From: Occallatibacter riparius
Lineage (GTDB): Bacteria > Acidobacteriota > Terriglobia > Terriglobales > Acidobacteriaceae
Direction: 5' to 3'
NCBI RefSeq assembly: GCF_025264625.1
Contig: NZ_CP093313.1
Coordinates: forward strand, 310,001-374,000
Length of the DNA stretch: 64,000 bases
The notes below the pieces were generated by a model, which saw nothing but the letters and a program-made list of their open reading frames with translations, was not told the origin of the DNA and searched no databases. The translations under genes and the position numbers were made by a program. Every line of letters starts with the position of its first letter. Position 1 is the stretch's first letter. Below are positions 49,154 to 60,581 of the stretch, piece after piece.

Positions 49154-49999
49154 TTAGGAGGCTTTTGCGTAGTCCCCGGACTGAGGCAGACAACGGTGGC
49201 TTGCCGAATAGATCACGAATCGCTCACCGCGGAGAAATCCGATCAGCGTCAGTCCGAACTCACGGGCAAGTTTGACTGCGAGACTGGAAGGCGCGGACAC
49301 GGAGGCAATCACTGGAATGCCGACGGCGAGCGCCTTCTGGATAATTTCAAAGCCACCTCTGCCGCTCACGAGCAGGACATTATCACTGAGTGGCACGCGG
49401 TTTTGCAGGAGCGCCCAACCGGCGATCTTGTCCACCGCATTGTGTCGACCGACGTCTTCTCGCAGGACGACGAGGTCGCCTTGCTTGTCGAAGAGTGCGG
49501 CAGCGTGAAGGCCGCCGGTCCGATCGAACAGGGCTTGTTGTGCGCGCAATGCCTCAGGCATTTTGCATAACACTTCAGGGGAGATGCGGAAACTTTGATT
49601 GGGGGAGCGCAGCCCTCTGCGGCGGACGGTTTCGATGGTGGCTTTGCCACAGATGCCGCAACTCGAGGTTGCGAAGAAGTTGCGCTGGAGTGTGGTCGAG
49701 TCGAAATCAGCGTTCGCCAAGCGAACTTCCACGATATTCCGCTTTGTTGTTGTCTTGGTAGTAAGGTGGTCCACTTGCTCGATCTGTTCGCATGAATCGA
49801 TGATGCCCTCGGTGAAAAGGAAGCCCAGAGCTAATTCGCGATCGTGCCCGGGGGTGCGCATGGTTACGCTCACGGGAACGCCGTTGACGCGGATTTCGAG
49901 CGGTTCTTCGGCGACCAAAGAATCCTGGACGGAACTGACTGCGCCGCTGCTCCATTCGGTGACCTGTGTCAATTCGAGGCTCTGCGGGGGTGGTCGCAT
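49154..49999 (-). CDS. fdhD: FdhD, formate dehydrogenase sulfurtransferase
   Basis: A 281-residue protein that transfers sulfur from a cysteine desulfurase to the bis-MGD cofactor of formate dehydrogenase; without it the enzyme is inactive. Family motifs are NGVPVSVTMRTPGHDRELALGFLFTEGII, the catalytic SSCGICGKATIE with the Cys pair that carries sulfur, REDVGRHNAVDK, SGRGGFEIIQKALAVGIPVIASVSAPSSLAV, and the C-terminal LIGFLRGERFVIYS. It is the last gene of the formate dehydrogenase operon, 15 bp after the NrfD subunit, on the same strand. Confidence 0.95.
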   Translation of the reverse strand: MRPPPQSLELTQVTEWSSGAVSSVQDSLVAEEPLEIRVNGVPVSVTMRTPGHDRELALGFLFTEGIIDSCEQIEQVDHLTTKTTTKRNIVEVRLANADFDSTTLQRNFFATSSCGICGKATIETVRRRGLRSPNQSFRISPEVLCKMPEALRAQQALFDRTGGLHAAALFDKQGDLVVLREDVGRHNAVDKIAGWALLQNRVPLSDNVLLVSGRGGFEIIQKALAVGIPVIASVSAPSSLAVKLAREFGLTLIGFLRGERFVIYSASHRCLPQSGDYAKAS

Positions 50000-50014: not shown

Positions 50015-51136
50015 TTACGCGGATTCTCCTGAAATGAGCGTTGTGGGCGCGCTAGAGATAAATGAATCGCTGGATTGCTGCTCGCCTGCGTCTGAGCGCG
50101 GTCCCCAGAACGGTCTTCCGGTTGACGATGGTGCGTTTCGATTGGCGAGTTCGGCATCCATTGCTGACTCCTGGCCCGCGTTTGTGATCGCCCATTTGAG
50201 AGCCAGACCGCCGGCGATGGTCATCAACGGTGCGAAGACGGAGCGGAGGACGGAGGAGCGGCTTCTGCGCAGAACTGCGGGTGCTACGATGCCGAGACCG
50301 ATGGCGCCCAGCACGAACAGAGCAGACTGACTGCCGGTTGTAAAGGGGCGAGTTGCCGGACCAGCGCTGGCGGCGTAGGCGATGAGGGAGGCAGCTTCGG
50401 CTGCGGCCGAAATGTCCTCGAACCGCGCGAGTTGCCGATCCAGTTCGTGGTCATTTGAATTGCCGCTCGCCAGAGCGAGTGCCGCGGCGCCAGTGCTCAT
50501 AGAGCTTGCGGCGAAGAGTGGGCCGAGGAAGTTGGTGTGCGACCAAACTGGATTAGCGGTAGTTTCCAGCAACACTCCGGGATAGCTGATCATGGTGAGC
50601 GCAAAGGGAAGGCCGAGTGCGGAGACGACGCGTGCGGGAAGTAGACGCTGCAGCAGATGCAGGAGAACCCGGCCGAACGGCAGGCGTGCCGCAGGAATCA
50701 TGAACACCGCGAGCAGCGTTGCGAATAAACCATCGCCGGAGAGCGCCCATGCCCCATGATTCATGGGCGAGGTTTTCTTGAAAATGCGAAGCATGTGGTG
50801 GAAGCGCTCAGGGCGACCGAGATCGGCGATGAGCAGAGGAGGGCAAGCCAGCATGGTGGCGAAGGCGATGAGGCGTCCGCGGCGAACGAGTTTGGCATAG
50901 CGTTCGTTGCCGGTGAGATCGGCAATCGCCGATAGGGTGTAGGCGCCGGCACTGATGCCTTCGAAGAAGAAGTAGAGCGCGATCTCCCAGCGCCAGAAAG
51001 GGCGTTTAAGAATCGGAAGGCCGTAGTAACCGGGTTCGCCGACGCGCTCTGGAGTGGCGCTGCGCTGGATGTCGTAAGCGGGCGTGAGCTGGCTGAAGAC
51101 GTCGCGCGGATCGTTAATTTCCTGGAGCTCAGCCAC
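50015..51136 (-). CDS. NrfD/PsrC-type membrane subunit of formate dehydrogenase
   Basis: The membrane anchor and quinone-reactive subunit, 373 residues. The start is set at GTG (51136), because GGAGG sits just before it and the codon overlaps the Fe/S gene's TGA (GTGGCTGA); the ATG at 51193 would overlap the upstream gene by 65 bp. After a cytoplasmic lead (EINDPRDVFSQLTPAYDIQRS), eight or more helices begin at PFWRWEIALYFFFEGISAGAYTLSAIADL, a family hallmark, and include LIADLGRPERFHHMLR, also typical. The C-terminal 50 residues are polar. It presumably passes electrons from the Fe/S subunit to the quinone pool. Confidence 0.9.
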   Translation of the reverse strand: MAELQEINDPRDVFSQLTPAYDIQRSATPERVGEPGYYGLPILKRPFWRWEIALYFFFEGISAGAYTLSAIADLTGNERYAKLVRRGRLIAFATMLACPPLLIADLGRPERFHHMLRIFKKTSPMNHGAWALSGDGLFATLLAVFMIPAARLPFGRVLLHLLQRLLPARVVSALGLPFALTMISYPGVLLETTANPVWSHTNFLGPLFAASSMSTGAAALALASGNSNDHELDRQLARFEDISAAAEAASLIAYAASAGPATRPFTTGSQSALFVLGAIGLGIVAPAVLRRSRSSVLRSVFAPLMTIAGGLALKWAITNAGQESAMDAELANRNAPSSTGRPFWGPRSDAGEQQSSDSFISSAPTTLISGESA

Positions 51137-51968
51137 GACTTCCTCCAGCGAAGAGCAACGCGGAAACTGCCGTGAGGGCGATGGCTGCGGCAAAGCTGAA
51201 GATGTAGTTCTTCTTGAGATGAGCCGCCGGTCGGCGCGGGCGCTCAGGGAGGTTGTAGACGAAGGAATTGTCTTTCAGCAGGAAGAATGAGTTCAGCGCG
51301 CTGTATTCACCGGATGCTTCAGCACCGTAGAGGTACGCATCGGTCTCGCCGCGCGCGTGGAGTTCCTCAACACGCTTGCGAGCGATTTCGCGGAGGTCTT
51401 TGACCTTGCCGAACTTGATGGATTCGGTAGGACACGACTTTGCACAGGCCGGTGTGAGGCCGTCCTTCTGGCGGTCATAGCAGAGGGTGCACTTGTGGGC
51501 TCGGCCATCGGATTTGTTGCGCGCGATCACGCCGAAGGGGCACGCAACGACGCAATTCGCGCAGCCGTTGCAGACATCCTGCTGGACGTAGACGTTGGCG
51601 AATTCGTTGTAGAGAAGCGCGCCTGTGGGGCAGGCTTCAACGCACGGAGCCGCCTGGCAGTGCTTGCAGACGTCGCTCATCATTAGCCAACGATTGATTT
51701 GTTCGATGGGATCATATTGCTCGACGAACGCCACGTGGCGCCAGGTTGTATCGGACAGCGCCACTGTGTTGTCGTAGCTGTTGCCGGTCCAGTTGAAGCC
51801 GTCGGCGGGAAGCTGGTTCCACTGTTTACAAGCGACCTCGCAGGCCTTGCAACCGATGCAGAGCGTCGTGTCGGTAAAGAATCCCGTCTCTTCTTCATCG
51901 GCAGGCGGCTCGGGGCGAATCCAGGTGTCGCGCAGGTCGGCGGCGATTTGTGCCAGCGACTCGTTCAT
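51129..51968 (-). CDS. Formate dehydrogenase iron-sulfur subunit
   Basis: A 279-residue electron-transfer subunit with four [4Fe-4S] clusters. The Cys groups are CIGCKACEVACKQWN, CKHCQAAPCVEACP, CNGCANCVVACPFG, and CTLCYDR with CAKSCP. A C-terminal hydrophobic helix (YIFSFAAAIALTAVSALLFAGG) anchors it in the membrane, as in FdnH. ATG overlaps the catalytic-subunit stop by 4 bp (ATGA). It carries electrons from the molybdenum or tungsten centre to the NrfD-type subunit. Confidence 0.95.
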   Translation of the reverse strand: MNESLAQIAADLRDTWIRPEPPADEEETGFFTDTTLCIGCKACEVACKQWNQLPADGFNWTGNSYDNTVALSDTTWRHVAFVEQYDPIEQINRWLMMSDVCKHCQAAPCVEACPTGALLYNEFANVYVQQDVCNGCANCVVACPFGVIARNKSDGRAHKCTLCYDRQKDGLTPACAKSCPTESIKFGKVKDLREIARKRVEELHARGETDAYLYGAEASGEYSALNSFFLLKDNSFVYNLPERPRRPAAHLKKNYIFSFAAAIALTAVSALLFAGGSRG

Positions 51969-54900
51969 ATGGCTTGTCCTTCCGGCTGAGCGGATTTAGA
52001 GGTGTCTGGCGATTCTTCACGGGTGGGCCACGGAGCAGCGGGCAAAGGCTTGATGTCCTCATGGTGTTCAAGGCGGCCGGCACGTACATCCACGGTGAAT
52101 GCTTTGGCTTCGTGCATGCTCACGTTGGGATCGGCGCTGATGGAGGTGAGGTCGTTTGCGATTGCGCCGACTGTCTCGCCGGCAAACCCCCAGTGGAAAG
52201 GCATGCCGATCTGGTGCACAGTCCTGCCGTTCACGATGGGGGGCTGCACGCGGCGAGTGACCATGGCACGCGCTTCAATGGCGCAGCGCGAGTTCCATGC
52301 CACCATCCATCCACCGTGGTCGATTCCCTTCTCTTCCGCCAGTTCCGCACTGATCTCGATGAACATGCCGGGCTGCAGCTCGTTGAGCCAACTGTCAAAG
52401 CGGCTCATGGGGCCGCTGAGATAGTGCTCGGTGAGGCGATAGTTGGTGGCGACGATCGGGTACTCCGCGGTAGGGCGGTTGTAGGTGTTGAGCGGGACGT
52501 GATAGAGCTCGATGGTGGGGTTGACGCGCTGCTCGGGATAGAGGAGGTTGGGAATGGGCGACTCGATCGGCTCGTAGTGCGTGGGCAGAGGGCCGTCTTT
52601 CACGCCCATCGGCGCGAATAGCCAGCCGCGCCCGTCGGGCTTCATGATGAAGGGCGCGTCGCCTGAAATGGCCTGCATGCCTGTGGAGTCGGAGTTGGGG
52701 CGATAGTCGGGTGGTTTCGTCGGTTCGAAGTCGGGGACGTCGGGGCCGGTCCAGCGCTTGTTCTCCTCATCCCACCACATGTACTTTTTGCGTTCGGACC
52801 AGGGACGGCCGTCGGGATCAGCGGACGCGCGGTTGTACATCATGCGGCGGTTCAACGGCCACGAGAAGCCCCAGTCGGGACTGGTGTATACGCCGGGAGT
52901 GAGTTTGCGCGAGCGCGATCGATTGTTGCCTTCTTCCGGGAATACGCCGCTATAGATCCAGCAGCCGCAGGCGGTGCTGCCGTCATCGCGAAGGCTGTTA
53001 AAGTCGCGCACCTGCTTGCGGTCCGCAACGGTGTAGCCATTGATTTCCATCAGGATCTTCTGGGCATCCGGTTCGCCTTCGATTCGGCTTGCCGAACCGT
53101 CGGGCAACACCTCGGCACGATCGAATTCATAATCCCAGGTGAGATTCAGCAGGCCCTGATCGCGCTCGCGCGTTGAGCCCGCGTAAAGCTTCTTCAAGCG
53201 CTTGCCGAGTTCGTAGACGAACCATGTATCGGAGCGGCAGTCTTCGGGTGGATCGATGGCTTTGTCGTGCCATTGCAGCAGACGCTGCGTGTTGGTGAAG
53301 GTGCCCTCTTTCTCGGCGCTCGACGCAGCAGGGATGAAGAAGACTTCGGTGCCGATGGTGGCGGGATCGGGATTCTCGGGTCCCTTGTACCAGAACGCAG
53401 CCGTGTCGATTTCGAACCAGTCGCGGACTACCAGCCAATCAAGCTTCTTGAGGGCTTCGCGGTTCAGTTTGCCATTAGGAGCGCCCGCCGCAGGGTTCTG
53501 GCCAAAGAGGAACATGCCTTTGATCTTGCCTTCGAGCATGCGGATCATGCAGGCGAGATGCGAGTAGTTGTCGTCCACGCGCGGAATCCACTTGAAGCCG
53601 TACTCGTTTTCTTTCGTGGCGGCATCGCCGTACCAGGCCTTGAGCAGGCTGACCATGAATTTCGGCAGATTGGCCATGAAGCCAGTCTTGGGCGTTTCCT
53701 GCTTGAGATAGCATTCGAGTGTGCCGTGATCGCGCAGAGCAGATGGCTGCATGATGTAGCCGGGGAGCAATTCGTACAGAGTCGGCACATCGGTGGAACC
53801 TTGAATGCTGGCGTGGCCGCGCATGGCCATGATGCCGCCGCCGGGACGTCCCATGTTGCCGAGCAGAAGCTGCACTATGGTTGCGGAACGGATGATCTGT
53901 ACTCCGGTTGAATGCTGCGTCCAACCAACGGCGTAGACGATGCAGCATGTTCGTTCGCGACCTGAGTTGGAGCAGATCGTTTCCGCAACGCGCACGAAAT
54001 CCTGTTCGCTGCAGCCGCAGATGTCGGCCACCATCTCAGGGGTGTAGCGGCGATAGTGGCGTTTGAGAATGTTCAGCACGCAGTTGGGATTCTGCAACGT
54101 CGGATCGCTTGGTGGTAGTGGATTCTCAAGGTGGCCGGTGCGCTCGGTGAACGACTCGGCTTTCATGTGATGGCCGGCCTGCGTGCGCTCGCCTTCGCCT
54201 TCGCCCTCGTAGTGCCACGTCTTTTGCGCGTCGTAGGTGCGCTTCTCCTGGTCGAAGCCGGAGAAGATGCCGCCAAGGTCCTCAGCGTCCTTGTATTCGT
54301 CATTCACGATAGTGGCGGCGTTGGTGTAGGCCAGCACGTAATCCTTGAACCACTTGTCGTGCAGCAGGATGTAATGAATGAGTCCGCCGAGAAAGGCGAT
54401 ATCCGTGCCGGTGCGGATCTTCACGTATTGTTGACACATGGCCGAAGTGCGCGAGAAGTGCGGGTCAACATGGATCAGCTTCGCGCCGCGTTCTCGCGCC
54501 ATCATGGGAAAACGGAAACCGACTGGATGCGCCTCCGCCATGTTGGAGCCCATGATCAGAATGCAGTCAGAGTTCTGCAGGTCTTCCTGAAAGCTTGTGG
54601 CCGCTCCGCGACCGAACGAGGCGCCCAGACCGGGCACCGAAGCGCTGTGTCATATTCGCGCCTGGTTTTCGATGGGAATAATGCCAAGGCCGCCGTTGAG
54701 CAGCTTTTTGATGAGGTAATTCTCTTCGTTGTCCATGGTGGCGCCGCCCAGCGACATCATGTTCGTCACGTGGTTCAGCATTTGGCCGTCGCGGTTTTCG
54801 ACGAATCCCTGCTCCCGCGTTTCCACGGTCAGGTGCGCGATGCGATCCATCGCCCAGTCGAGCGGCCTGGGCTCCCAACGATCGGAATAGGGAGCGCGAT

Positions 54901-55192
54901 ACATTACGTGCTTGATGCGATGGGGGTTCACGTTCAGCTGAAATGTGTTCGCACCCTTGGGACAGAGAGTGCCGCCGTTGATGGGGCTGGCGGGATTGCC
55001 CTCGATGTCAATGATCTTGCCGCCCTTGACATACACAAGCTGGCTGCAGCCCACCGCGCAATAGGGGCAGACGCTGTTCACCTCTGTGGCGCCGTTAATG
55101 CGTGAGTGCTTGTTGACTGAATTCGGGCTGAACGGCTGGTTTGCGCTGGCGCGTTCCGGATTTCGGGCAGGAATTCCTGAATGGTTCGGCAT
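51965..55192 (-). CDS. Selenocysteine-containing formate dehydrogenase catalytic subunit
   Basis: A 1075-residue molybdopterin enzyme that oxidises formate to CO2. Two ORFs in the same frame are separated only by an in-frame TGA at 54650-54652, at the position where E. coli FdnG carries selenocysteine: the flanking sequence reads ENQARI-U-HSASVPGLGASFGRGAATSF. This is Sec181 here. A SECIS-like hairpin follows immediately. The N-terminal cluster ligands are CPYCAVGC and CPKG (residues 42-80). The start at 55192 is preferred because GGAG lies 8 nt upstream. No twin-Arg signal is visible, unlike FdnG, suggesting a cytoplasm-facing site. Genes for the Fe/S, NrfD and FdhD proteins follow in an overlapping operon. 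Confidence 0.93.
54620..54652 (-). promoter_or_regulatory. Bacterial SECIS element
   Basis: Starting at the UGA, 14 nt downstream the mRNA forms a stem GGUGCCC (54638-54632) paired with GGGCGCC (54626-54620), closing a loop GGUCU. The E. coli fdhF SECIS has a GGUCU loop in the same position. SelB would bind here to deliver Sec-tRNA. selA, selB and selC are not in the window. Confidence 0.88.
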
Positions 55193-55865: not shown

Positions 55866-58800
55866 ATGTTCGTGTTTGAAATTTCCCCTCGAGTTGAATC
55901 ACCGCAAATCGCGCTTCGGCTACCGCGGCGGATTCATGGCTTTGCTCTGCGCGTCATCGTGATGTGTTTTACCGCACTCATCGGTGCTATCTCTCTCCAT
56001 GCCACGAATCGTGTCCAGCAAGAGAACAGCCTACCCGGCACGCCGGGATGGAATGACTTCTCCACGGTGGCGACGCAGGATCTGATCTCAGGATTTGGGT
56101 CTACGATCAGTGTCAATGCGGGTGGTTCGATTGATTTCTACGTCACCACCACGGACCCGAGCTTTACCATCAATGTCTTTCGCACCGGCTACTATCAGGG
56201 CATCGGCGCACGTCTGGTTCAATCGCTGGGCAGCTTCCCCGGCTTACATCAGGCTATTCCGACGCCAGATCCGGTAACGGGCATGGTCGCGTGTACAAAC
56301 TGGACGAAGACCACGACATTGCAAGTGCCGTCAACATGGGTTTCGGGGGTCTATCTGGCCAAACTTACCACCTCCGCCAACCATTCCAGCTTCATCTTCT
56401 TCGTCGTACGCGATGACGGCGGCCATGAAGACATTCTTTTCCAGACCAGCGTGACAACGTATCAGGCTTACAACACGTGGGGTGGCACGAGCCTGTACGA
56501 CAATCAAACCAGTAAGAGCGTCTACTCCTACCCGCATGCAACTAAGGTCAGTTTCGACCGACCATTTAATCCTCTGGACAGCAACGGTGCGGGGCACTAT
56601 CTGTTGTACGAACAGTACTTCGTGTTCTGGCTGGAACAGCAGGGATACGATGTGGCGTACACGACGAATGTGGATCTCGACCTGGGCAGCAGCCCTCTAG
56701 TGAACCACAGGGCCTTCCTTTCGGTTGGACACGACGAATACTGGTCGCGTCCTATGCGCACGAACGTGGAGAACGCGGTTGCGTCGGGGCTCAATGTCGG
56801 TTTCTTCTCGGCGAACTCGATCTATTGGCAGATTCGATTGGAGCCTAACCCGAATGGCGTTGCCGGCCGCGTGCAGGTTGGCTATAAGGACTTCGCCCAG
56901 TCTCCGACGCCGCCGGGACCGGACCCGCAGTGGCAAGTAAATAACTCGATTCTCACCGCGAACTGGCGCGATCCGGCTATCAACGATCCCGAGAATGCCC
57001 TAATCGGCGTCATGTTCGAGAGCGCCGCAAGCGGAAACTACATCGTTCAGAATTCCTCGAATTGGATTTACGCCGGCTCCGGCTTTGTTGATGGAACGTC
57101 GATTCCCAACATCGTGGGATACGAGTACGACAAGGTCTGGAACAACGGCTTTACCCCGGCAGGGCTGACAATACTTTCGCAATCGCCGGTAGTCGATGGA
57201 TCGGGGCTTCATTCGAATGCCAATTCGACAATATATACCGCTCCCAGCGGGGCCACTGTGTTCGCGTCGGGAACGATCCAGTGGAGTTGGGGGTTGGCAA
57301 ACCTGAACTCGAATAACTTTGCGAACGCTGGAATTCAGCGAACGACCGCCAACATTCTGAACAACTTTATCCTCGGCGTTGCCGAGGTGAGTTTCAGCCC
57401 AAGCACGGTGAATTTCAATGGCGTTCAGGTCGGCAGCACAAGCGCCTCGCAGACCATCACGCTCACGAACTCGGGCACGGGCACGCTGAACATCGCCAGC
57501 ATCGGCCTGACGGGCCCGGATCCGGGAGATTTCGCCCAGACCAACAACTGCCCAGCCGCGCTGACCTCCGGCTTATCGTGCACCATCAACGCGACATTCA
57601 CGCCAACGGCGGCCGGAACCAGAGGCGCAACCATCACGGTCACGGATAACGCTGCGAACAACCCGCAGGGTGTGCCCCTCAGCGGCACTGGCCAGGCGGT
57701 GACCGCACCCATTGTGAGCCTGAGTCCCACGAGTCTCACATTCGCAAGCCAGAACGTAGGCACATCCAGCGCACCGCAGACCATAACACTCTCAAATGTC
57801 GGCACGGGTCCGCTGTACATCAGCAGCATCGCCATCGCAGGCACCAACCCTGGCGACTTCAGTTCCACGAATACGTGCCCGAGCGGTACCAACTCGCTGG
57901 ACGTGAATGCTTCGTGCACCATCAGCGTGACCTATTCGCCGCTTGCAGGCGGTTCGCGCACTGCGAGTCTAACGGTGACCGATAACGCGGCAGATAGTCC
58001 CCAGAACGCCTCACTGATTGGGTCAGCGATTGTGCCTACCATCTACTTCAAAGATGGTTTTGAATCGGGGAACTTCAACCTTTGGAATCTGCCCAGCGGG
58101 GACAGCACCGGCACGCGGACGGTCCAGACACAGGTGGTCAACAACGGCACCTATGCTGCGTCTTTCGTAAATGCCACCAGCAAGTACAGCTATATCTATA
58201 CCGCGATGTCCGCTGCGCACAGCCAGACGTTTACGCGGTTCTACTTCCGGCTGGCGAGTCTGCCACAAACGACCCCTCTCGCGATAGGTTCGGCTGCCAG
58301 TGGGTCCAGTAGTTGGGAGATAGACTACGACAGCACTTTCCAGGGCCTGGACTTCTACTTCTGGGACAGTACGGGGAACGTGCAGAGCGTGTTCTCGGCT
58401 AAGAGTTCCATCGTTGCCAACCAATGGTACTGCGTGGAATTAGGTGTTAATCAGACGACTGCCGGAGTAGGCCAGGCGTGGCTCAATGGAGCTCTGATCG
58501 GCACTGTCAATGCCAATCTTCTCACTGCCAATCCGTTCGTCAATCTGATGCTGTATACCACGTCTGCCGGCACGTTCTACTTCGATGACGTGGTAGTGTC
58601 CAATCTCTACAACGGCCCGCTGAATGCTGGGCCATCAGCGAACGTGAGCCCGGCGAGCGTGGTGTTTGCCAATCAACTGGTGAATTCAACCAGCAGCTCG
58701 CAGGCGGTTACGCTGAGCAATCAGGGAACGGCTGCCCTGAGCATCAGCAACATCGCGCTGGGTGGAACGAATCCTGGAGACTTCGCTCAAACGAACAACT

Positions 58801-60581
58801 GCCCCAGCGGGACCAATACGCTTGCCGTCGGCGCTTCCTGCACGATCAATGTCACGTTCACTCCAAGCACTACCGGAACGCGCGGCGCCACACTTGCAAT
58901 CACCGATAACGATCCGACGGGCGGCCAGAACGTGCCGTTGAGCGGAACAGGGGCCCCGCCAACTCCGGGGGCTACGGTCACACCAACCAGTCTGACTTAC
59001 GCCAGTCAGGCAGTGGGTATGACCAGTACCGCGCAGGTCATCACGATCAAGAGCAGCGGAACATCGGCGCTGAGCATCAGCAGTATCGGGCTAGGGGGAA
59101 CCAACCCCGACGACTTTGCGCAAGCCAGTAACTGCCCCACCGGAGCCAATACGCTGGCGGTCGGCGCCTCGTGCACAATCAGCGTCACCTTCACTCCGAC
59201 TGCAACGGGCACTCGCAGCGCCATCGTCACCATCACAGATAACGACCCGAGCGGCGTACAGAATGTATCGCTGAGCGGAACGGGGACTACACCGACGCCG
59301 GGCGCGACAGTGACCCCAACCAGCCTCAGCTATGCCGGGCAGGTTGTAGGTACAACCAGCGCGGCGAAGACCGTTACGATCAAGAGCAGCGGAACGGCTC
59401 CGCTGAGCATTAGCAGCATCGGGCTGGGTGGGACGAACGCCGGTGACTTTGCTCAGACCAACAACTGTCCCAGCGGTACCAATACGCTGGCGATCGGCGC
59501 CTCCTGCACGGTAAATGTCACCTTCACGCCAACTGCTACCGGTGCTCGCAGCGCAACGCTGGTCATTACCGATAACGACCCGTCGGGCACCCAGAACGTG
59601 GCGCTGAGCGGATCAGGCGCTTCCCAATCCGCAGGGGTGACGGTCACTCCCACCACGCTCGCCTTCAGCAGCCAGATTGTGGGTACAAGCAGTGCCGCGC
59701 AGATCATCACAGTGAAGAGTAGCGGAACGGCCGCACTGAGCATAAGCAGTATTACGCTGAGTGGGACCGCTGCCGGGGACTACGCTCTTGGCAACAACTG
59801 CCCCAGCGGAACTAATACACTGGCGGCCGGCGCTACCTGCACCGTCGGCGTCACGTTTACTCCAACCGCTCGTGGCACCCGCACTGCCACCGTAACGGTG
59901 AGCACTAATGCGCAAGGTACAGCACCTACCGTCGCGCTCTCGGGCACGGGAATCGGACCAGTCGCGTCGCTCTCGACCACCGCGCTCACGTTCGCTACTC
60001 TGAGGCTGACGACAACCAGCGCCGCGAAGAGCGTCACTCTCAGCAACAAGGGCAATTCCACACTGAACATCGCCAGCATTGCTGTCACAGGCGATTTCGC
60101 GAAAACAACCACGTGCACGTCTACCCTGGCGGCGGGCACCAGTTGCACAGTGAGCATTACGTTCTCGCCCACCGCGACGGGGACCCGCACCGGGACGCTA
60201 GCGGTGACCGATGATTCGGTTAGCGGTAGCACTCAAACTGCGTCTCTGACCGGTACCGGAGCGGACTTTACAATCTCGGCTTCGCCCACAAGCGCAGCCG
60301 TAGCGGCGGGAGGCAAAGCGAGTTACACGGTTACCGTAACTGCGCTGGGAGGCAATTTCACGTGGTCCGCCGCCTTCTCGTGCTCGGGACTGCCCAAGGG
60401 TGCCAAATGTACCTTCTCGCCAACATCTGCGTCACCGGGGACGACATCGGCAAGCTCCGCCCTGACACTTTCCACCACGAGCGGATCTACAGGCACGCCC
60501 CCTGGAACGTACACCATCAACATCAAAGGAACCTCCTCGACCTTGGTGCATACGATCCCAGTCACGCTGCAGGTGAACTAG
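55866..60581 (+). CDS. Giant secreted protein: dimethylformamidase-like domain plus choice-of-anchor D repeats
   Basis: A 1571-residue exported protein. After an N-terminal hydrophobic segment (ALRVIVMCFTALIGAISLHA), residues about 50-505 resemble the N,N-dimethylformamidase beta-subunit-like domain (FYVTTTDPSFTINVFRTGYYQGIGARLV, HRAFLSVGHDEYWS, NVGFFSANSIYWQIRLE). Two choice-of-anchor D repeats follow, then an inserted LamG-like domain (about 723-915), then five more repeats (923-1465), and a final 105-residue Ig-like domain ending PVTLQVN. Each repeat has the pattern ...PTSL.FA.Q.VG..S..QTITLSN.GT..L.I..I and an NNCP...SCTI..TFTPT core. GGAGGAGCAC precedes the ATG. It is unlinked to its neighbours. 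The role is probably adhesion or binding; an amidase activity is untested. Confidence 0.85.
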   Translation: MFVFEISPRVESPQIALRLPRRIHGFALRVIVMCFTALIGAISLHATNRVQQENSLPGTPGWNDFSTVATQDLISGFGSTISVNAGGSIDFYVTTTDPSFTINVFRTGYYQGIGARLVQSLGSFPGLHQAIPTPDPVTGMVACTNWTKTTTLQVPSTWVSGVYLAKLTTSANHSSFIFFVVRDDGGHEDILFQTSVTTYQAYNTWGGTSLYDNQTSKSVYSYPHATKVSFDRPFNPLDSNGAGHYLLYEQYFVFWLEQQGYDVAYTTNVDLDLGSSPLVNHRAFLSVGHDEYWSRPMRTNVENAVASGLNVGFFSANSIYWQIRLEPNPNGVAGRVQVGYKDFAQSPTPPGPDPQWQVNNSILTANWRDPAINDPENALIGVMFESAASGNYIVQNSSNWIYAGSGFVDGTSIPNIVGYEYDKVWNNGFTPAGLTILSQSPVVDGSGLHSNANSTIYTAPSGATVFASGTIQWSWGLANLNSNNFANAGIQRTTANILNNFILGVAEVSFSPSTVNFNGVQVGSTSASQTITLTNSGTGTLNIASIGLTGPDPGDFAQTNNCPAALTSGLSCTINATFTPTAAGTRGATITVTDNAANNPQGVPLSGTGQAVTAPIVSLSPTSLTFASQNVGTSSAPQTITLSNVGTGPLYISSIAIAGTNPGDFSSTNTCPSGTNSLDVNASCTISVTYSPLAGGSRTASLTVTDNAADSPQNASLIGSAIVPTIYFKDGFESGNFNLWNLPSGDSTGTRTVQTQVVNNGTYAASFVNATSKYSYIYTAMSAAHSQTFTRFYFRLASLPQTTPLAIGSAASGSSSWEIDYDSTFQGLDFYFWDSTGNVQSVFSAKSSIVANQWYCVELGVNQTTAGVGQAWLNGALIGTVNANLLTANPFVNLMLYTTSAGTFYFDDVVVSNLYNGPLNAGPSANVSPASVVFANQLVNSTSSSQAVTLSNQGTAALSISNIALGGTNPGDFAQTNNCPSGTNTLAVGASCTINVTFTPSTTGTRGATLAITDNDPTGGQNVPLSGTGAPPTPGATVTPTSLTYASQAVGMTSTAQVITIKSSGTSALSISSIGLGGTNPDDFAQASNCPTGANTLAVGASCTISVTFTPTATGTRSAIVTITDNDPSGVQNVSLSGTGTTPTPGATVTPTSLSYAGQVVGTTSAAKTVTIKSSGTAPLSISSIGLGGTNAGDFAQTNNCPSGTNTLAIGASCTVNVTFTPTATGARSATLVITDNDPSGTQNVALSGSGASQSAGVTVTPTTLAFSSQIVGTSSAAQIITVKSSGTAALSISSITLSGTAAGDYALGNNCPSGTNTLAAGATCTVGVTFTPTARGTRTATVTVSTNAQGTAPTVALSGTGIGPVASLSTTALTFATLRLTTTSAAKSVTLSNKGNSTLNIASIAVTGDFAKTTTCTSTLAAGTSCTVSITFSPTATGTRTGTLAVTDDSVSGSTQTASLTGTGADFTISASPTSAAVAAGGKASYTVTVTALGGNFTWSAAFSCSGLPKGAKCTFSPTSASPGTTSASSALTLSTTSGSTGTPPGTYTINIKGTSSTLVHTIPVTLQVN
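58635..60260. repeat. Internal DNA repeats of about 324 bp in the 55866 gene
   Basis: Five in-frame units encode the choice-of-anchor D modules after the LamG-like insert. Units 3-6 share long runs at the DNA level (for example around AACAACTGCCCCAGCGG and CACCTTCACTCC), so they are recent duplications, while unit 7 is diverged. Such arrays are prone to copy-number change and to collapse in short-read assembly. Confidence 0.75.

What the first reader, a model, noticed from the sequence alone, without database searches (positions are those of the whole stretch)
51965..55192. Formate dehydrogenase alpha is a selenoprotein split by an in-frame UGA
Two ORFs in one frame meet at a TGA exactly where FdnG-type enzymes carry selenocysteine (ARI-U-HSASVPGLGASFGRG). 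Fourteen nt after the UGA is a stem GGUGCCC/GGGCGCC closing a GGUCU loop, the loop sequence of the E. coli fdhF SECIS. Ordinary gene callers would split or truncate this gene. The organism must therefore encode SelA, SelB, SelD and tRNA-Sec elsewhere. I know of few characterised selenoproteins from this phylum.
Basis: partly seen in the sequence, partly recalled or inferred. Interest (0 to 1): 0.7.

Follow-up and report, generated by a model that had tools for sequence, protein, structure and literature searches.

The report
Selenocysteine formate dehydrogenase, ordinary and listed
A soil bacterium's formate dehydrogenase gene contains a UGA codon that is almost certainly read as selenocysteine rather than stop; the reading is right, but this enzyme is one of the most widespread bacterial selenoproteins and the genome's selenoprotein count is already in print.

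Summary
On the minus strand, 55192-51965 is one frame of 1,075 codons interrupted only by TGA (54652-54650, codon 181), where E. coli FdnG and FdhF also have UGA. A hairpin with loop GGUCU starts 14 bases from the U, the same spacing as E. coli fdhF. The genome (one contig, 6,794,547 bp) carries a selD-selA-selB cluster with a divergent tRNA-Sec(UCA). In genomes of the same order the site is TGA in 72 of 72 readable loci (74 fetched). One hairpin pair joining two synonymous codon positions covaries (57 of 62 paired; shuffles at most 47). The gene heads an fdhA-fdhB-nrfD-fdhD operon and lacks a twin-arginine motif.

It is not new. A 2025 paper lists Occallatibacter riparius DSM 25168 (same length, 6,794,547 nt) with three known selenoprotein genes. 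I found two beside this one (an AhpD/CMD-like CxxU protein and a deiodinase-like protein, adjacent at 1.73 Mb), which makes three. A 2006 survey already counted four acidobacterial selenoproteins. Sec insertion itself is inferred, not shown. Verdict: correct, ordinary.

The parts
51965..55192 (-). fdhA: FdnG-type formate dehydrogenase alpha subunit, 1,075 codons, Sec at codon 181, no twin-arginine motif at its N-terminus
   Evidence: (NF041513 1451.2 bits against cut-off 1400; TIGR01553 1001.5 against 814.2)
54650..54652 (-). in-frame TGA read as selenocysteine (inferred)
54620..54638 (-). SECIS upper stem-loop GGUGCCC-GGUCU-GGGCGCC, 11 nt after the UGA
   Evidence: (RF01989 32.8 bits, E 1.9e-5, below gathering score 63)
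51129..51968 (-). fdhB: 4Fe-4S ferredoxin-type subunit with a hydrophobic C-terminal stretch (by eye); start overlaps the fdhA stop (ATGA)
   Evidence: best NCBIfam model FDH-beta TIGR01582, 174.3 bits, below its cut-off 334.7
50015..51193 (-). NrfD-type membrane subunit (quinone-binding anchor, inferred); ORF as listed, true start may be downstream
   Evidence: PF03916 110.7 bits, cut-off 25.8; NrfD equivalog TIGR03148 49.6 bits, below cut-off 347.6
49154..49999 (-). fdhD: sulfurtransferase needed for FDH activation
   Evidence: PF02634 255.9 bits; TIGR00129 185.2 bits, cut-off 140.9

Best explanation
It is an ordinary bacterial selenoprotein gene. SelD makes selenophosphate, SelA converts Ser-tRNA-Sec to Sec-tRNA-Sec, and SelB carries it to the ribosome while its C-terminal winged helices hold the hairpin that follows the UGA, so UGA 181 is read as Sec. 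The product is the catalytic subunit of a molybdenum (or tungsten) bis-PGD formate dehydrogenase. Sec181 would coordinate the metal, FdhD would sulfurate it, FdhB would pass electrons through Fe-S clusters, and the NrfD-type protein would feed them to the quinone pool. Lack of a twin-arginine motif suggests that the active site faces the cytoplasm. Shown here: the frame, the UGA, its conservation, the conserved hairpin and the machinery genes. Inferred from known families: Sec insertion itself, metal ligation, electron path and orientation.
For: Family membership above curated cut-offs and alignment of the UGA to the Sec of E. coli FdnG (PDB 1kqf; DNA). selD-selA-selB cluster over curated cut-offs (TIGR00476 387.1 of 125, TIGR00474 534.6 of 267.9, TIGR00475 345.2 of 242.25) plus divergent tRNA-Sec UCA in the same genome. 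In 200 genomes of the order, own included, 61 have the FDH; of 74 loci fetched, 72 hold the site and 72 of 72 are TGA, the window's own among them. SelB above cut-off in 59 of 61 FDH genomes against 27 of 139 others, Fisher p about 6e-27, not corrected for kinship; the two exceptions, G117 and G125, have SelA and a tRNA-Sec match. The pair of two synonymous positions (17/29 from the U) is paired in 57 of 62 distinct sequences, as GC 36, CG 9, GU 7, AU 3, UA 2; 10,000 shuffles reach at most 47. The loop codon is GGT (41) or AGT (21) in 62 of 62 distinct TGA sequences, but GGT in only 3 of 10 Cys homologues (the latter counted by eye).
Against: No protein evidence. Folding energy of this hairpin does not exceed shuffles. 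Rfam SECIS_3 score is half its gathering score; SECIS_1 does not match, though that search rang in no control either. The outermost pair (14/32) is paired in only 41 of 62, and sliding it by -3 gives 44, so that pair is not supported; pair 20/26 is reached by 180 of 10,000 shuffles. A second FDH clade (HGPT type, E. coli-like) does not fit this hairpin register (17/29 paired in 26% of 35 distinct sequences). All counts share ancestry.
Confidence: 0.97

Rival explanations
1. Nonsense mutation or sequencing error: a pseudogene or Cys (TGC/TGT) gene misread as TGA.
For: Cys homologues exist: 10 of the 43 named loci that hold the site have TGC or TGT, all in Actinobacteria by record title.
Against: TGA is at the same codon in 72 of 72 readable loci of the order and in 32 of 43 named loci (10 Cys, one TGN); 894 codons stay open after it; GC3 is unchanged; fdhB overlaps the end.
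Confidence: 0.01
2. UGA is read as another amino acid (Trp or Cys by a suppressor or selC*-like tRNA) rather than Sec.
For: tRNA-Sec-like tRNAs with other identities are known, including allo-tRNAs from Acidobacteria (PMC7609411, passages read).
Against: One tRNA-Sec(UCA) stands beside selDAB; the next Rfam match is an ordinary tRNA-Ser(UGA) by ARAGORN. FDHs of this family have Sec or Cys here.
Confidence: 0.015
3. Two separate proteins: the 180-residue N-terminal piece and a C-terminal piece starting at GTG 54637.
For: A GTG-started ORF is listed whose start lies 12 nt past the UGA.
Against: The cut would fall beside the catalytic residue; the two solved homologues shown residue by residue are single chains across it; the GTG is the Val codon of the conserved HSASVPGLG stretch and lies inside the hairpin stem.
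Confidence: 0.01

Closest known systems
E. coli FdnG (formate dehydrogenase N alpha, PDB 1kqf)
   Same: Aligned over residues 37-1044 of 1,083 (numbered from GTG 55213), 739 bits, Sec at the same place; UGA followed by a SECIS
   Different: FdnG has a Tat signal and a cytochrome b partner FdnI (both recalled; fdnI is listed); here no twin arginine and an NrfD-type partner; the E. coli fdnG hairpin has loop AGUCU and another stem
E. coli fdhF SECIS
   Same: Stem at +14 and GGUCU at +21 from the U
   Different: The predicted fdhF stem has an unpaired U and a 3-bp upper part; here a 7-bp stem with a U-G wobble
NCBIfam NF041513 'formate_DH_Act'
   Same: 1451.2 bits against cut-off 1400 over residues 29-1051
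   Different: Ten actinobacterial homologues carry Cys; I did not test these against this model
Selenoprotein set of Occallatibacter riparius DSM 25168 (GCA_025264625.1) in PMC12013277 Table 2
   Same: Same genome length, 6,794,547 nt; three known selenoprotein genes, the number found here

Membership tests
Sec-containing formate dehydrogenase alpha (FdnG type) | Match to the FDH-N alpha family over its length | tested here: met
   TIGR01553 1001.5 bits against 814.2; NF041513 1451.2 against 1400
Sec-containing formate dehydrogenase alpha (FdnG type) | In-frame UGA aligned with the catalytic Sec/Cys | tested here: met
Sec-containing formate dehydrogenase alpha (FdnG type) | Twin-arginine signal, as in periplasmic FdnG | tested here: not met
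   No RR before the first CxxC in this gene's open frame; the claim is therefore an FdnG-type subunit, not periplasmic FDH-N
Sec-containing formate dehydrogenase alpha (FdnG type) | Selenium in the protein, formate oxidation | not testable with these tools
   needs protein
Bacterial SECIS element | Hairpin just 3' of the UGA with a conserved GU-containing loop and correct spacing | tested here: met
   +14 stem and +21 GGUCU as in fdhF; loop codon fixed in 62 of 62 distinct sequences, covariation at 17/29
Bacterial SECIS element | Rfam SECIS gathering score | tested here: not met
   RF01989 32.8 of 63 bits; RF00031 none, control silent
Bacterial SECIS element | SelB binding | not testable with these tools
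   needs binding or reporter assay
Sec-decoding trait | selA, selB, selD and tRNA-Sec(UCA) in the genome | tested here: met

The most novel reading that the evidence does not exclude
The Tat-less, NrfD-anchored Sec FDH forms a cytoplasm-facing, quinone-linked formate oxidase shared by Acidobacteriota, Chloroflexi, Alphaproteobacteria and Actinobacteria, spread between phyla together with the Sec trait, and distinct in topology from FDH-N. Partner genes were annotated only in the window, so this is a proposal.
Probability: 0.3. Interest if true: 0.35.

Novelty: already known. Interest (0 to 1): 0.12.

Why it matters
Chiefly for annotation: read by the standard code, the gene is cut after 180 codons. 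PMC12013277 reports that only 195 of 298 selenoprotein genes in its 20 test genomes were correctly annotated at NCBI. Naming three likely selenoproteins of a cultured acidobacterium makes formate use and selenium need directly testable in that strain.

Tried and rejected
SECIS_1 (RF00031) in the own genome found nothing, but it rang in no control genome either, so it says nothing. Folding energies of the 48- and 61-nt stretches around the UGA gave no signal; the same holds for the two other UGA genes, and Rfam found no SECIS there. The second tRNA-Sec-family match at 3.79 Mb (47.2 bits, just over gathering) was checked as a possible extra or allo-tRNA and is an ordinary tRNA-Ser(UGA) by ARAGORN. 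I aligned 61 hairpins meaning to build a covariance model, but did not build it once a Pfam search had led to the other two UGA genes. My first script for the AhpD-like motif used a wrong spacing and found only noise; corrected, where I dropped five out-of-frame matches by eye. The deiodinase-like gene was found by reading the ORF list next to the AhpD-like gene, not by a genome-wide search, so a fourth selenoprotein is not excluded by my calls, only by the published count of three. A pattern missed seven loci; four were read later, three do not hold the site.

Full report
What is there. The minus-strand frame from ATG 55192 to TGA 51965 is 1,075 codons plus stop, with one internal TGA at 54652-54650, codon 181. 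The translation with U is an FdnG-type FDH alpha: TIGR01553 1001.5 bits (cut-off 814.2) and NF041513 1451.2 bits (cut-off 1400). It aligns over residues 37-1044 with E. coli FDH-N (PDB 1kqf, 739 bits) and over 42-1044 with PDB 1h0h, the Sec being the X of those chains. The fdhA stop overlaps the fdhB start as ATGA, and third-position GC is the same on both sides of the UGA.

The hairpin. GGUGCCC-GGUCU-GGGCGCC begins 14 bases from the U of UGA; the same offset (+14) and the same loop position (+21) are found in E. coli fdhF read from NC_000913.3. Rfam SECIS_3 matches at 32.8 bits, E 1.9e-5, below its gathering score of 63. The energy is no better than shuffles. The comparative test is stronger. 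I took 62 distinct TGA sequences of this FDH type (HSS, HSA or HSPT after the UGA). Positions 17 and 29 from the U are both third codon positions (Val and Gly); they pair in 57 of 62 with five pair types, against a mean of 37.2 and a maximum of 47 in 10,000 shuffles, and 15 and 36 when the 3' side is slid by one codon either way. Pair 20/26 is too constant to tell, and pair 14/32 fails its slide control (44 against 41). The loop codon is GGT for every Gly (41) and AGT for every Ser (21), while three other nearby Gly codons use all four spellings, and Cys homologues use GGT in 3 of 10, counted by eye. Shuffles ignore kinship, so these numbers are not probabilities. The E. coli-like HGPT clade (35 distinct sequences) does not fit this register.

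Conservation of the UGA. In 200 genomes of the order, the own genome included, 61 had a match at E 1e-50 or better. I fetched 74 loci, among them the window's own gene and several genomes with two or more; 69 were read by the first script and 69 are TGA; L032, L036 and L117 were missed by its pattern and are TGA too; L134 and L135 do not hold the site. So 72 of 72 readable. Two further listed pieces (in G195 and G005) start past the site and were not fetched. Of 44 named loci from other species, 32 are TGA, 10 Cys (Streptomyces, Streptacidiphilus, Actinomyces, Actinocrinis, and Solirubrobacterales and Frankiales MAGs), one TGN, and L087 does not hold the site.

Machinery. SelD TIGR00476 387.1 bits (cut-off 125), SelA TIGR00474 534.6 (267.9), SelB TIGR00475 345.2 (242.25), SelB with PF25461, PF09107 and PF09106 over their cut-offs, and a tRNA-Sec(UCA) found by both Infernal (70.4 bits, gathering 47) and ARAGORN, all within G000:C1 6.043-6.048 Mb. 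By eye the tRNA has an 8-bp acceptor and a 5-bp T stem (sequence), and SelD appears to be a Cys form (translation). SelB over the curated cut-off occurs in 59 of 61 FDH genomes and 27 of 139 others; the two FDH genomes without it have SelA and a tRNA-Sec match of 69 and 76 bits, so their SelB is probably split or unassembled, which I did not check.

The other selenoproteins. A Pfam search for CMD in the own genome gave 13 places, one with an internal TGA. It is an AhpD/CMD-like protein with CPYULDSH at G000:C1:1733358-1733939. Of the 58 places listed for its relatives in the order, 30 were fetched (own included): 19 have TGA and 11 a Cys codon there. The next gene, 1734026-1734778, is a deiodinase-like protein (PF00837 104.2 bits, cut-off 27) with GSYTUPPF; of 36 places listed 30 were fetched (own included) and 30 of 30 have TGA, followed by an almost frozen GGCGGGAGGUUCCCGCC hairpin. 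In G110 and G115 both genes lie next to selB (coordinates). Both kinds are in the list of known prokaryotic selenoproteins, with motifs CxxU and UxxC (PMC9312934 Table 1, passages read); the deiodinase-like gene here reads UPPF rather than UxxC.

What is known. PMC12013277 (passages, and the section with Table 2) lists Occallatibacter riparius DSM 25168, GCA_025264625.1, 6,794,547 nt, with three known and no new selenoprotein genes. G000 is 6,794,547 bp in one contig. The table gives no family names; that FDH is one of the three is my inference. PMC1794560 (passages read) counted 3 families and 4 selenoproteins in Acidobacteria in 2006. [quoted passage not shown] The listings of my searches (selenocysteine + Acidobacteria + formate dehydrogenase; selC/Acidobacteria/allo-tRNA; selenoprotein/Acidobacteria/SelB/Sec trait; selenocysteine + Acidobacteriota; Occallatibacter + selenocysteine; Occallatibacter + formate) showed no biochemical study of an acidobacterial selenoprotein; most subscription papers are not held.

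Mechanism. The fdhA-fdhB-nrfD-fdhD order points to a quinone-linked formate oxidase with an FdhD-dependent cofactor. The beta and NrfD-type proteins fall below the curated cut-offs of the FDH-N beta and NrfD equivalog models, so this is not a plain FDH-N complex. No twin arginine precedes the first cluster motif in this gene; 'RR' appears upstream in 7 of the 28 open frames looked at, but those stretches may lie before the true start. Cytoplasmic location is therefore an inference.

Verdict. The thing is one of the most widespread bacterial selenoproteins, in a phylum and a genome where selenoproteins had already been counted.

Noticed in passing
L143:1363-1944 (G000:C1:1733358-1733939, +): AhpD/CMD-like selenoprotein gene, CPYULDSH; TGA in 19 and Cys in 11 of 30 loci fetched, own included (58 places listed).
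   Followed up: yes
L143:2031-2783 (G000:C1:1734026-1734778, +): Deiodinase-like selenoprotein gene, GSYTUPPF, with a nearly invariant GGCGGG-AGGUU-CCCGCC hairpin after the UGA; TGA in 30 of 30 loci fetched, own included (36 places listed).
   Followed up: yes
G075 (L153, L177): AhpD-like and deiodinase-like genes both keep a TGA beside a partial selB match below cut-off, and no SelA match was found in this 98% complete genome: possibly a Sec trait being lost, or an assembly gap.
   Followed up: partly
L093-L131 (HGPT-type FDH loci): A second, E. coli-like Sec FDH clade in the same family whose hairpin does not fit the register of the window's clade; some genomes, such as G102, G108 and G150, carry both.
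   Followed up: partly
window 55866-60581 (+): ORF of 1,571 residues with repeated GDFAQTNNCP-type modules, probably a secreted repeat protein.
   Followed up: no
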